A DNA stretch of 64,000 nucleotides from Nitrospira sp. GTDB taxonomy: Bacteria; Nitrospirota; Nitrospiria; Nitrospirales; Nitrospiraceae. This document shows positions 1 to 5,310 of this stretch, in pieces; the first letter of the stretch is position 1; each line of letters begins with the position of its first letter. The stretch is taken from the NCBI GenBank assembly GCA_016873515.1, contig VGXB01000002.1:1-64000 (forward strand), read 5' to 3'. The position numbers were made by a program, and so were the translations under genes. The notes beneath the pieces are model-generated. The model was not told where the DNA came from, searched no databases, and worked only from the letters and a program-made list of their open reading frames with translations.

Positions 1-829
1 TCGTCATGCGGCACAGCGGATGAATGGTGGCTGGTAATCAGCCACTGTGTGCCATTCCACTTGTAGGTGAACGTGTACCGCGCTTTGATTTTGGCTCCGG
101 TTTTCTGGAAGATGAAGGTGTAAAGCCCTGTGTCGATGGCGGTATTACAATCGATTTCGATCTCACGCGAGTCGATGCGCCCGACCGGGCGATTCTCAAG
201 AAAATGGAGGAAATAGTCCTCTTTGTCGGTGGCCGTGAGCCGAGGCCGGCTCGACACGGTCGGCAGGAATACTGACGTCGCCGCATAATTGGCGGACACC
301 TTGTGCACGTCGCCGGTTTGGAGGGACGCATTCCAGCGGTCGAACAGGCGGGCAATGTCCTCCTCCGTAGCTGCAATGCATAGCTCTGTATGTTGGGAAA
401 TCTCTTGGTGCACATGTTCCAGAGGCGCATCGTCATGCGGCACAGCGGATGAATGGTGGCTGGTAATCAGCCACTGTGTGCCATTCCACTTGTAGGTGAA
501 CGTGTACCGCGCTTTGATTTTGGCTCCGGTTTTCTGGAAGATGAAGGTGTAAAGCCCTGTGTCGATGGCGGTATTACAATCGATTTCGATCTCACGCGAG
601 TCGATGCGCCCGACCGGGCGATTCTCAAGAAAATGGAGGAAATAGTCCTCTTTGTCGGTGGCCGTGAGCCGAGGCCGGCTCGACACGGTCGGCAGGAATA
701 CTGACGTCGCCGCATAATTGGCGGACACCTTGTGCACGTCGCCGGTTTGGAGGGACGCATTCCAGCGGTCGAACAGGCGGGCAATGTCCTCCTCCGTAGC
801 TGCAATGCATAGCTCTGTATGTTGGGAAA
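1..829. repeat. Perfect direct tandem repeat, period 429 bp (1-400 identical to 430-829)
   Basis: Read directly; ORFs 24-275/453-704 and 196-381/625-810 are identical at offset 429. 429 = 143 codons, so the frame is preserved. Confidence 0.95.
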
Positions 830-929
830 GCGTGGAAGCGAGTTTTTGAGGAGTACCGGTTTGTGGTATCTCTGCGTAGCTCACGATGGGGGCTACGATC
901 ACTGCAAGGAGCAAGACCAATCTTCTCAT
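1..929 (-). CDS. Exported protein with tandem CaMKII association-domain / SgcJ-EcaC (SnoaL-like) domains, partial at the left window edge
   Basis: Manual minus-strand translation from ATG at 929: MRRLVLLLAVIVAPIVSYAEIPQTG... (signal peptide), then ...EEDIARLFDRWNASLQTGDVHKVSANYAATSVFLPTVSSRPRLTATDKEDYFLHFLENRPVGRIDSREIEIDCNTAIDTGLYTFIFQKTGAKIKARYTFTYKWNGTQWLITSHHSSAVPHD repeated in frame. No stop before base 1, which probably explains its absence from the ORF track. Confidence 0.8.
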   Translation of the reverse strand, partial: MRRLVLLLAVIVAPIVSYAEIPQTGTPQKLASTLSQHTELCIAATEEDIARLFDRWNASLQTGDVHKVSANYAATSVFLPTVSSRPRLTATDKEDYFLHFLENRPVGRIDSREIEIDCNTAIDTGLYTFIFQKTGAKIKARYTFTYKWNGTQWLITSHHSSAVPHDDAPLEHVHQEISQHTELCIAATEEDIARLFDRWNASLQTGDVHKVSANYAATSVFLPTVSSRPRLTATDKEDYFLHFLENRPVGRIDSREIEIDCNTAIDTGLYTFIFQKTGAKIKARYTFTYKWNGTQWLITSHHSSAVPHD

Positions 930-1195
930 AAAAGATCCTCTTTCTGGTGCTTAATGCCTACGACAACCGATATGGCAACGCACGGGCAAGTTTGTCGTAG
1001 GTATGCGAGGGGAGCATTCTACGACGCACTTGCCCCTAGTTTGATAGTATAGAGGGGGGGGAAAAATCTTTCAAGTGATCAAATCGGGCAATCCCGGATG
1101 CTGTCATGGGACATTGTTTCCCCACGGCTCCATGGTTATAGCCTGGAAAGGCTCGGAAGAACGCAGGGATCAGCCTGTCATATTCAAGCGTGCGG

Positions 1196-1501
1196 CTATT
1201 GAGGAAAGACGGACGAGTGATCGCTGGTAATCAGCCACTGGAAGCCGTCCCACTTGTACGTGAAGAAGTATCGGGCTTTGACGGTGGTCCTGGTCTTCTT
1301 GAAGATGAAGGAATAGAGGCCTTCATCGATCGCCCTATTGCACTCGAGTTCGATCGTACGAGAATCAATACGCCCTTCCGGCTGATTCTCACGGAAGTGA
1401 TGAAAATAGTCCTCCTTCTCGCTGGGCGTGAAACGCGGCTTACTGGACACGGTCGCAAGCAACACGGACTTGGTCGCGTAGTTTTCCACGACCTTGAGTT
1501 A
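1196..1501 (-). pseudogene. 5'-truncated third copy of the CaMKII_AD/SgcJ-like domain
   Basis: VENYATKSVLLATVSSKPRFTPSEKEDYFHHFRENQPEGRIDSRTIELECNRAIDEGLYSFIFKKTRTTVKARYFFTYKWDGFQWLITSDHSSVFPQ aligns with the repeat domain, but an in-frame TAA (1499-1501) precedes it and the N-terminal helix and signal peptide are absent. Confidence 0.75.
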
Positions 1502-1701
1502 GGGGCAATGTGCGTGTCCGATGTGACGGTCAGCCGGCGAGAGTATTTCGCGCCTCCCCCTCCAGGAAAAAATGAGCGGGCAGACTGTCCCAGGTGCGGA
1601 TGTCTGATGAATGGGGCAGGGACTCCCTGTACTTGTGATCTCCAGAACGATGCTTCTATACTCCCGAGTCGGTATGGTGGTTGGAGTAGGAACAGGACGC
1701 C

Positions 1702-2073: not shown

Positions 2074-2142
2074 ATCGATCAACTGGTCCTCGGGCTTCCA
2101 AGATGTGTGCAGGTTCTGGCAGATTGGAACGATGACCGGACG

Positions 2143-2297
2143 TATTTTCGACCACCTTTTCTTCGACAACACCCACGCCGATTCAGGATTCCCCGTATCT
2201 CATCCAGACCAATCCCCAGGCAGCCGAGTTGATCAATCGCGATCCAGAGTAATTCGAGCGGCCAGGGTTTGCGACCCTCTTCTGGCGGAAGCGCGTT
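2143..2297 (+). pseudogene. Decayed 5' fragment of a second SelO (YdiU/UPF0061) gene
   Basis: FFDNTHA-(deletion/frameshift)-DSPYLIQTNPQAAELINRDPE*FERPGFATLF(+1 nt)GGS matches FDNTYAR...DEPYLVGFNPAAAALLDLDPAEAERPEFARLFGGS of the intact downstream gene. Confidence 0.75.
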
Positions 2298-2625
2298 AAC
2301 GGCCTGCATGCTGATTCGCGCGGCGCGAATCGTACCGCCTGACACGGATTTCTTTGGACCGGCGGCGCATGTGTTTCGTATCGTGCCATGCCTGCATCCG
2401 CAAGAGCGTTTCCATGTTCACCTGAAATGCCTTTTCAATGCGGAAGGCCATCTCAGGCGATAGTGCCGCACGCCCGTGCAACACATCCGAGAGGGTGGCC
2501 CGGCGCACGTCAAGCACGTCCGCTGCCTGGGTGATGCTCAAACCCAGTTCCTTTAGGATCTCATCACGGATAAACTCACCCGGATGCGGCGGTGTCATGC
2601 CGATCTTATGAAGTGTCTTGCTCAT
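2296..2625 (-). CDS. higA: HigA-family antitoxin (HTH XRE)
   Basis: MTPPHPGEFIRDEILKELGLSITQAADVLDVRRATLSDVLHGRAALSPEMAFRIEKAF is a typical HigA/VapI HTH. Confidence 0.88.
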   Translation of the reverse strand: MSKTLHKIGMTPPHPGEFIRDEILKELGLSITQAADVLDVRRATLSDVLHGRAALSPEMAFRIEKAFQVNMETLLRMQAWHDTKHMRRRSKEIRVRRYDSRRANQHAGR

Positions 2626-2729
2626 CAGACGTTACGGAGACGCTTGACCAGATCGGGGCGTAAACCCCGGCTGTCATTTTCTTCAAGAAAGCGGAGCAGA
2701 CCTCGATGCTGGACAGATCCAATCCGCAT
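2625..2729 (-). pseudogene. Truncated HigB/RelE-family toxin remnant (34 codons)
   Basis: MRIGSVQHRGLLRFLEENDSRGLRPDLVKRLRNV* resembles the HigB N-terminus (F.hkGL..ffe.gd..gi...ha.rLr). It ends in TGATG overlapping the higA start. Too short for the ORF track. Confidence 0.6.
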
Positions 2730-2855
2730 AAAACAGTGTACGGCCACACCGTACATGTGTCAACCACGCGCCCCTGGGGAATCAGCCATATCCTCTTATG
2801 ATGAACGGCGAGGGCCGTCTTGCCAGCGAAGGGTCTTCCCTGTCATGCTTCCTGC

Positions 2856-4331
2856 ATGCCGCAGCGATCGCTGGAACAGCTTTCCTTCGACAACACGTAC
2901 GCCCGACTGCCCGAGGCCTTCTACGCCAAGCTCAACCCAACGCCGTTCTCGGATGAGCCGTATCTGGTCGGCTTCAATCCCGCCGCCGCCGCGCTACTCG
3001 ATCTAGATCCCGCAGAAGCCGAGCGGCCTGAATTCGCCCGCTTGTTTGGCGGAAGTCTGCTTGTGCCGGGTATGGAGCCGCTGGCGATGCTGTACTCCGG
3101 CCATCAGTTCGGCGTCTATGTCCCGCAACTGGGCGACGGCCGTGCAATTCTCCTTGGAGAAGCAACAAACGAGCGGGGCGAGCGATGGGATTTGCATCTC
3201 AAAGGCGGTGGGCTCACGCCTTTTTCGCGTGACGGCGACGGGCGCGCGGTCTTGCGCTCGACGATCCGCGAATATCTCTGTTGCGCGGCTATGACAGGTC
3301 TCGGCATCCCGACGACGCAGGCGCTCTGTATTGTCGGGAGCGACCACAAGGTCTATCGTGAACAGGTTGAGACCGGCGCGACACTGGTCCGCATGGCGCC
3401 GTCGCATGTGCGATTTGGCACGTTCGAAATCTTCTACTACCGCAAACAGCATGAACACCTGAAAGTCCTGGCCGACTATGTGATCGCCCAGCACTATCCG
3501 CATCTCACGGTTGTGCCAACCAAGTATGCCCGCTTCTTTACCGAAGTCGTCGAGCGGACCGCCACCCTGATTGCGCAGTGGCAAGCGGTCGGGTGGTCTC
3601 ATGGGGTGATGAATACCGACAACATGTCGATCCTTGGTCTCACCCTGGACTACGGCCCTTACGGGTTTATGGACAACTACGACGCCGGTTTCATCTGCAA
3701 TCACTCCGATCACAACGGCCGCTATGCGTATAATCAGCAGCCGTACATCGGATTGTGGAATCTCAGCTGTTTGGCACAGGCCCTATTGCCGTTGGTGGAG
3801 AAAGAGGTCTTAAAGGCCGTGCTTGAGACCTATCAACCTTTCTATGAGCAGACGTATCTCACTCATATGCGGGCGAAGTTGGGATTACTAGAGGGGCGCA
3901 CGGAAGACGACTCCCTGATTCAAGACTTTCTGGGCCTGCTCCAGGAGAGTCACGCGGATTACACGAGGGTGTTCCGAGAGTTGAGCGTCTTCTCGCCAGC
4001 CGAGGGTACGACGAACGAGCGACTGCGCGAGCTCTTTCTCAACCGCGACCGGTTCGACGAATGGGCGGCGCGGTATCGAGATCGGCTGCGAAGCGAGCAG
4101 AGCCGCGATGGGGAACGACAGGCGCGGATGGACCGGGTCAATCCCAAGTATGTGCTCCGCAATTATCTCGCGCAGGTGGCGATCGAAAAAGCCCAACACA
4201 AGGATTTCTCCGAGGTCGAGCGGTTGTCCACCCTGTTGCAACATCCCTACAGCGATCAGCCCGGCATGGAGGCCTATGCGGCTCCGCCTCCCAATTGGGG
4301 CAAGCACTTAGCGGTCAGTTGTTCGTCCTAG
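2856..4331 (+). CDS. selO: Protein adenylyltransferase SelO (YdiU/UPF0061)
   Basis: LSFDNTYARLPEAFY..., GDGRAILLGE, HLKGGGLTPFSRDGDGRAVLRSTIREYL, GVMNTDNMSILGLTLDYGPYGFMDNYD, and C-terminal PYSDQPGMEAYAAPPPNWGKHLAVSCSS. Confidence 0.95.
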   Translation: MPQRSLEQLSFDNTYARLPEAFYAKLNPTPFSDEPYLVGFNPAAAALLDLDPAEAERPEFARLFGGSLLVPGMEPLAMLYSGHQFGVYVPQLGDGRAILLGEATNERGERWDLHLKGGGLTPFSRDGDGRAVLRSTIREYLCCAAMTGLGIPTTQALCIVGSDHKVYREQVETGATLVRMAPSHVRFGTFEIFYYRKQHEHLKVLADYVIAQHYPHLTVVPTKYARFFTEVVERTATLIAQWQAVGWSHGVMNTDNMSILGLTLDYGPYGFMDNYDAGFICNHSDHNGRYAYNQQPYIGLWNLSCLAQALLPLVEKEVLKAVLETYQPFYEQTYLTHMRAKLGLLEGRTEDDSLIQDFLGLLQESHADYTRVFRELSVFSPAEGTTNERLRELFLNRDRFDEWAARYRDRLRSEQSRDGERQARMDRVNPKYVLRNYLAQVAIEKAQHKDFSEVERLSTLLQHPYSDQPGMEAYAAPPPNWGKHLAVSCSS

Positions 4332-4590
4332 AAATCCTTCCGGCCTGGCATCGTCGATGCGCTCTCCATGAGCAGCCTCCCTCAGGGGGATCGCTCGACT
4401 CACGGTCTCGGTGGGTTCGTAGAGCGGTCCCCCGCCAACACCTACGCACACTCCCATCGCGGTGTTCAACCGAGCATCACCATCGCTTCACTCTCCGCAC
4501 CATCTATTGTACAGTGGCGATTCGTTTAGGCGGAGGACGCGCTCAGCGTGCTCGTGCTGGTGGAGGATCTACACTGGTGGCGGAACAACC

Positions 4591-5310
4591 GTGCGGCAGA
4601 CAACTCTAGGCGGATTGAAGGTCCGGCTTGCCGGCGGTACTGATGGGCGAGGAGGCGGGACTGGCCCGCTAGTGATCCTGCTCCATGGGTTCGGTGCGCC
4701 GGGGGATGATTTAGTTCCGCTCGCGGAGGTGATCGATGTTCCGGCAGGCACGCGATGGCTGTTCCCGGAAGGGCCTTTACCGCTCAGCCTGGGCTTCGGC
4801 GATGCGCGGGCTTGGTGGATCATCGACTTCGCGCGGATCCAGGCGGATCGCGAGGCCGGCCGCGTGCGCGACATGTCGATGGAGATGCCGAACGGCTTGG
4901 CTCTCGCGAGAAAGCATCTGGCAGGTTTTCTCAACGAACTGCCTCGATCTCTGCCGGTCGAATTCACGCACACGGTGATCGGTGGGTTCTCGCAAGGGGC
5001 GATGCTGACCTGCGACGCAGTCCTGCACGATACGGCTCCGTTTGCTGGGCTGGTCCAATTGTCCGGAAATCTCCTGGCGCAACCGGTCTGGAGCCCGCTC
5101 ATGCCTCAACGAAAGGGTCTGCCGGTCTTTCAGAGCCATGGTATTGAGGACGAGATCCTCGCTCACATCGGCGCCGAACGATTGCGCGATCTGTTGGCCC
5201 AAGCCGGCCTGGCCATTGAATGGCATAGTTTCAGGGGCGGGCATGAAATCCCTGAACTGGTTCTGAGGCGACTCGGTGTGTTTCTCACAAAGGTGCTGAC
5301 GAAATCATGA
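4591..5310 (+). CDS. Phospholipase/carboxylesterase-type alpha/beta hydrolase (start uncertain)
   Basis: VILLHGFGAPGDDLVPLA..., GGFSQGAML nucleophile elbow, GGHEIPE C-terminal His. Confidence 0.85.
   Translation: MRQTTLGGLKVRLAGGTDGRGGGTGPLVILLHGFGAPGDDLVPLAEVIDVPAGTRWLFPEGPLPLSLGFGDARAWWIIDFARIQADREAGRVRDMSMEMPNGLALARKHLAGFLNELPRSLPVEFTHTVIGGFSQGAMLTCDAVLHDTAPFAGLVQLSGNLLAQPVWSPLMPQRKGLPVFQSHGIEDEILAHIGAERLRDLLAQAGLAIEWHSFRGGHEIPELVLRRLGVFLTKVLTKS

What the first reader, a model, noticed from the sequence alone, without database searches (positions are those of the whole stretch)
1..929. Perfect in-frame tandem duplication of an exported CaMKII_AD/SgcJ-like domain, hidden from the ORF track
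Bases 1-400 and 430-829 are identical with period 429 bp (143 codons). Minus-strand reading from ATG 929 gives a signal peptide and two identical NTF2/SnoaL-like domains joined by the linker DAPLEHVHQEISQ. Total identity, including synonymous sites, implies very recent duplication, gene conversion, or an assembly artefact. The copy number beyond base 1 is unknown.
Basis: partly seen in the sequence, partly recalled or inferred. Interest (0 to 1): 0.7.

Follow-up and report, generated by a model that had tools for sequence, protein, structure and literature searches.

The report
Two-domain exported iota carbonic anhydrase
The repeated gene at the window's edge encodes what looks like an exported carbonic anhydrase (an enzyme that interconverts CO2 and bicarbonate) built of two catalytic domains; the two-domain design is old and shared by related bacteria, but in this genome the two copies were recently made identical, and it is the only exported carbonic anhydrase recognised in this small genome.

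Summary
The repeat is real: bases 1-400 and 430-829 are identical, in frame, period 429. Window base 1 is a contig start; the last 127 bases of contig C21 equal window 1-127 and complete a 310-residue protein ending VPHDE-stop. The domain is more than NTF2-like: it is an iota-class carbonic anhydrase (iota-CA), with the catalytic Thr/Tyr/Phe/Phe/His/Ser at exactly the spacing reported for the Thalassiosira enzyme, in both copies. The tandem is not a new duplication. Of 24 genus members with the gene, all but one are multi-domain (two or three), usually with diverged domains, and the linker here is homologous to theirs; so an old tandem was recently homogenised by gene conversion or unequal exchange. 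A second, sister gene survives here only as a fused, truncated remnant (1196-1495). In 16 of 24 genomes the gene lies beside DabA (inorganic-carbon uptake). This 1.98-Mb genome has no detectable DabA, alpha-CA or beta-CA, leaving this as its only recognised exported CA (a gamma-CA-like protein remains). Enzyme activity is inferred, copy number is at least two, and assembly smoothing could hide a few differences between copies. New variant of a known kind.

The parts
1..929 (-). gene A: exported two-domain iota-carbonic anhydrase; 309 of 310 residues lie in the window, the last residue and stop on contig C21
873..929 (-). putative Sec signal peptide MRRLVLLLAVIVAPIVSYA, cleavage after SYA
   Evidence: sequence; Ala19 invariant in 23 relatives; not run through SignalP
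430..829 (-). repeat unit 1 (domain 1, residues 37-166); catalytic Thr81 687-689, Tyr96 642-644, His158 456-458, Ser160 450-452
393..431 (-). inter-domain linker DAPLEHVHQEISQ, homologous to linkers of relatives
1..400 (-). repeat unit 2 (domain 2); catalytic Thr224 258-260, Tyr239 213-215, His301 27-29, Ser303 21-23
1..127 (.). 127-base exact overlap with the end of contig C21 (C21:26291-26417)
1196..1495 (-). remnant of sister gene B: one truncated domain, start B1-like (catalytic Thr kept), end B2-like (DHSS), no signal peptide

Best explanation
Window 1-929 (-) encodes a periplasmic iota-class carbonic anhydrase (CO2 + H2O to HCO3- + H+) with two catalytic NTF2-like (CaMKII_AD) domains on one chain. 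The two-domain layout was inherited from an ancestor within the genus. Recently, recombination between the adjacent units (gene conversion, or unequal crossing over through a three-unit intermediate like the one present in genome G017) made domains 1 and 2 identical over the whole homologous unit, leaving the non-homologous linker and flanks untouched. Shown: the identity, the ancestral linker, diverged domains in relatives, a three-domain concerted array in G017, collapsed forms, catalytic residues in both domains, and absence of DabA, alpha-CA and beta-CA matches in this genome. Inferred: enzyme activity, export, and a role in inorganic-carbon supply.
For: Exact repeat in frame and completed by C21. 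Solved relatives: 3h51 E=2e-28 and iota-CA 7c5x E=7.5e-13; the same two lead the fold search. Catalytic residues Thr/Tyr/Phe/Phe/His/Ser at spacings identical to T. pseudonana iota-CA in both domains. Two- or three-domain genes in relatives; homologous linker, 0 of 5000 shuffles as good. Position-specific A1 and A2 groups in nine relatives versus zero differences here; dS bound 0.033 against 0.83-0.97 to G017 and at least 0.9 between domains in other gene-A relatives. Locus shared with DabA in 16 of 24 genomes and with P-II and alpha-CA in G017.
Against: No activity data; the NTF2 fold serves many functions. Exact identity and copy number rest on one short-read-type assembly whose contig breaks inside the repeat. 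Grouping of the G000 copies with G017 is only 83/61, and the direction of conversion is unresolved. A gamma-CA-like protein remains in the genome, so it is not the only possible carbonic anhydrase.
Confidence: 0.83

Rival explanations
1. A one-domain gene was duplicated in tandem very recently in this lineage (the plain reading of the first reader's finding).
For: Total identity of the units; one genus member (G021) and PF08332 matches outside the genus in the phylum sample are single-domain.
Against: The 13-residue linker is homologous to the linkers of nine relatives; recombination between units would delete it, so a one-domain stage followed by re-duplication would have to re-create it. All gene-A relatives have at least two domains.
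Confidence: 0.07
2. Assembly artefact: the second unit, or its exact identity, was produced by the assembler.
For: The contig starts inside the repeat and overlaps C21 by exactly 127 bases, so the repeat was a loop in the graph; bubble removal can merge copies that differ at a few sites.
Against: The linker joining the units has homologues in other genomes, so two units must exist; relatives assembled independently have two or three. Only full identity and exact count remain open.
Confidence: 0.1
3. The protein keeps the iota-CA fold but not the activity: a two-domain NTF2-like binding or scaffold protein.
For: The fold is functionally diverse; in sister gene B the second domain has lost the catalytic Thr in all 14 readable copies and often the His.
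Against: All 23 gene-A domain copies keep T-Y-F-F-H-H-S-S, and neighbours in relatives are inorganic-carbon genes.
Confidence: 0.12

Closest known systems
Bacterial iota-CA of Burkholderia territorii (BteCA-iota, PMC7191908) and the X. campestris homologue 3h51
   Same: Exported, SgcJ/EcaC annotation, CaMKII_AD domain, HHSS motif; same fold (TM-score 0.74 normalised by 3h51, 43% identity)
   Different: Those have one domain per chain and are thought to act as dimers; here two identical domains sit on one chain
Multi-domain iota-CAs of algae: T. pseudonana LCIP63 (four domains), B. natans Bn86287 (three, 7c5x)
   Same: Tandem iota-CA domains in one protein; same catalytic residues
   Different: Algal, organelle-targeted, with domains that differ moderately from each other; here bacterial, periplasmic, and the domains are identical
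Concerted evolution of paralogues in prokaryotes (PMC6053082)
   Same: Copies more alike within a genome than between genomes
   Different: The units here are domains inside one reading frame, and a sister gene at the same locus diverged instead

Membership tests
iota-class carbonic anhydrase | CaMKII_AD / SgcJ-EcaC NTF2-like domain related to solved iota-CA structures | tested here: met
iota-class carbonic anhydrase | Catalytic Thr, Tyr, His, Ser (mutagenesis, PMC8132391) and two Phe, at the T. pseudonana spacing (PMC8395977) | tested here: met
   T81 Y96 F97 F100 H158 S160 and the same in domain 2
iota-class carbonic anhydrase | C-terminal (H)HHSS motif (PMC8425729) | tested here: met
   SHHSS in both domains; only two His, allowed by '(H)HHSS'
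iota-class carbonic anhydrase | CO2 hydration activity | not testable with these tools
   needs purified protein
iota-class carbonic anhydrase | Signal peptide / periplasmic location (bacterial members) | tested here: inconclusive
   N-terminus has the form of a signal peptide by eye; no predictor run
recent tandem duplication of a one-domain gene | Linker without homologues and one-domain closest relatives | tested here: not met
concerted evolution of an old tandem | Copies more alike within the genome than between genomes while the duplication predates the species | tested here: met
   G000 and G017

The most novel reading that the evidence does not exclude
In this genus a tandem iota-CA locus evolves by repeated expansion, collapse and homogenisation: homogenisation keeps both domains of gene A catalytic while the second domain of sister gene B dies, and in this small genome the homogenised two-site enzyme has become the sole exported carbonic anhydrase, standing in for the lost DabA, alpha-CA and beta-CA.
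Probability: 0.35. Interest if true: 0.62.

Novelty: new variant of a known kind. Interest (0 to 1): 0.5.

Why it matters
Published accounts describe prokaryotic iota-CAs as single-domain (PMC8132391), mostly one domain (PMC8395977), or one to two (PMC8425729), and multi-domain forms as algal. A clade of bacteria with two- and three-domain iota-CAs, usually beside the DabA inorganic-carbon uptake gene, ties this enzyme class to carbon acquisition and offers natural comparisons (identical active pair, half-dead pair, three-domain, single-domain) for asking why iota-CA domains are repeated. A genome without DabA, alpha-CA and beta-CA makes the role of an exported iota-CA directly testable.

Tried and rejected
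A mosaic origin of the unit (A1-like first half, A2-like second half) was dropped because both halves may be ancestral states; tree tests do not settle the direction of conversion. A P-II gene remnant at about 1505-1560 (+) was not supported by tblastn at 1e-3. 'Only carbonic anhydrase' was reduced to 'only exported one recognised' after a YrdA-type gamma-CA homologue was found. A 2026 survey of carbonic anhydrase genes (PMC13098186) held nothing on iota-CA repeats for the words searched.

Full report
Observation. Bases 1-400 and 430-829 are identical and in frame on the minus strand. The window begins at base 1 of contig C2. Contig C21 (26,417 bases) ends with exactly the first 127 bases of the window, which is what an assembly graph with k=127 leaves between neighbouring contigs. 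Read across that join, the frame continues into C21 with Glu and TAG, giving a 310-residue protein: signal peptide, domain 1, 13-residue linker, identical domain 2, stop. The genome holds no other copy of the unit except the remnant described below. A loop of this type requires at least two units but does not fix the number, and an assembler can merge units that differ at a few sites, so 'perfect identity' is an upper estimate.

What the domain is. Pfam gives CaMKII_AD (PF08332, E=1.5e-27) and NCBIfam SgcJ/EcaC (E=9.9e-17). The relatives with solved structures are 3h51 (Xanthomonas campestris) and 7c5x (iota-carbonic anhydrase of Bigelowiella natans) by sequence, and these two also lead by fold (AlphaFold mean pLDDT 72.6). 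Catalytic residues established by mutagenesis are Thr106, Tyr124, His197 and Ser199 in the Anabaena enzyme (PMC8132391); in Thalassiosira they are Thr62, Tyr77, His139, Ser141, with Phe78 and Phe81 (PMC8395977). The window protein has Thr81, Tyr96, Phe97, Phe100, His158, Ser160 and the same again at 224-303: every spacing is identical. This is a family assignment with the catalytic residues in place, not a measured activity.

The tandem is old. Of 79 genomes of the genus, 24 carry the gene; all but G021 are multi-domain, a few being cut by contig ends or a frameshift. Gene A (the gene here) has two domains in ten genomes and three in G017. Four genomes (G068, G092, G097, G102) carry two adjacent two-domain genes, B and then A. 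In nine relatives domains A1 and A2 form position-specific groups (A2 support 100/99). The linker here is homologous to theirs (56-69% nucleotide identity over 45 nt, 0 of 5000 shuffles as high). Recombination between the units deletes the linker, so its survival argues that the gene did not pass through a one-domain state in this lineage. In a phylum-wide sample, PF08332 matches outside the genus were single-domain.

The identity is new. There are 0 differences over 130 codons and about 92 synonymous sites, so dS between the units is below about 0.033 (95% bound). To G017, the most similar gene, dS is 0.83-0.97; between domains 1 and 2 of the other gene-A relatives it is 0.9 or more, often saturated. 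Homogenisation was therefore late, by gene conversion or unequal exchange. G017 shows the same process at three units: they group together (97/88) and are mosaic, domains 2 and 3 being 98.6% identical in the first half and 90.3% in the second. The direction of conversion here is not resolved.

Contrasting fates at one locus. The second domain of gene B has lost the catalytic Thr in every readable copy (Leu or Phe) and often the His (Asp), while its first domain keeps all residues; by the published mutagenesis it should be inactive. In the window gene B survives only as a fragment at 1196-1495 that starts like B1 (Thr kept) and ends like B2 (DHSS): a collapsed fusion that has also lost its N-terminus. 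Expansion, collapse and homogenisation are all visible.

Context and likely role. In 16 of 24 genomes the gene shares its locus with DabA; in G017 the neighbours include DabA, a P-II protein, a porin-like protein, DUF2490 and an alpha-carbonic anhydrase. In the window's genome (99.84% complete, 1.98 Mb) no DabA, alpha-CA or beta-CA is detected, against 74, 32 and 53 of 79 genus members. A gamma-CA-like YrdA homologue and a SulP-family transporter on C21 remain. The best-supported role is periplasmic CO2/HCO3- interconversion in support of inorganic-carbon supply; this is inferred from family, residues, N-terminus and neighbours. Most gene-A relatives have a lipoprotein-type signal, whereas this gene and that of G017 have a cleavable-type one, which would make the enzyme soluble rather than anchored.

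Relation to the literature. Prokaryotic iota-CAs are described as single-domain (PMC8132391), mostly one domain (PMC8395977), or one to two (PMC8425729). A text search for carbonic anhydrase, Nitrospira and iota together found nothing specific. The genus is unnamed in these tools; that it is Nitrospira is my guess from genome relatives and gene content and is not needed for the argument. Overall: a known enzyme class in a bacterial multi-domain variant with recently homogenised domains.

Noticed in passing
window 2296-2760 (-): HigA-like antitoxin (HTH_3, E=3e-11) preceded by only a short HigB-like toxin fragment (…HRGLLRFLEENDSRGLRPDLVKRLRNV-stop): a toxin-antitoxin pair with the toxin decayed.
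   Followed up: partly
window 2140-2250 (+): Short fragment resembling the N-terminus of SelO (SPYLIQTNPQAAELINRDPE-stop) just upstream of an intact SelO gene (2856-4331): remnant of a second SelO copy; 30-nt repeat 2150-2179 / 2874-2903.
   Followed up: partly
gene A N-termini in relatives (L018, L047, L049 and others): Most gene-A relatives have a lipobox-type signal (AGCAGQ, MSCAEKP); this genome and G017 have SYAE / SHAE, suggesting a change from lipid-anchored to soluble enzyme.
   Followed up: partly
all domain copies; window Cys41 and Cys118: Two cysteines per domain are conserved in nearly all copies (positions 5 and 85 of the domain alignment), a possible disulfide.
   Followed up: no
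window 954-1004: Inverted repeat (13-nt arms, 92% complementary, 25-nt loop) just upstream of the gene A start codon; role unknown.
   Followed up: no
window 1505-1560 (+): Peptide VSDVTVSRREYF resembles the C-terminus of the P-II protein next to DabA in relatives, on the opposite strand; not significant by tblastn at 1e-3.
   Followed up: partly
L025 (G021) 4530-5033: Single-domain gene whose middle (LPLVSSKPRLTLDDKED, catalytic Thr to Leu) looks like second-domain sequence: likely a collapsed two-domain gene.
   Followed up: partly
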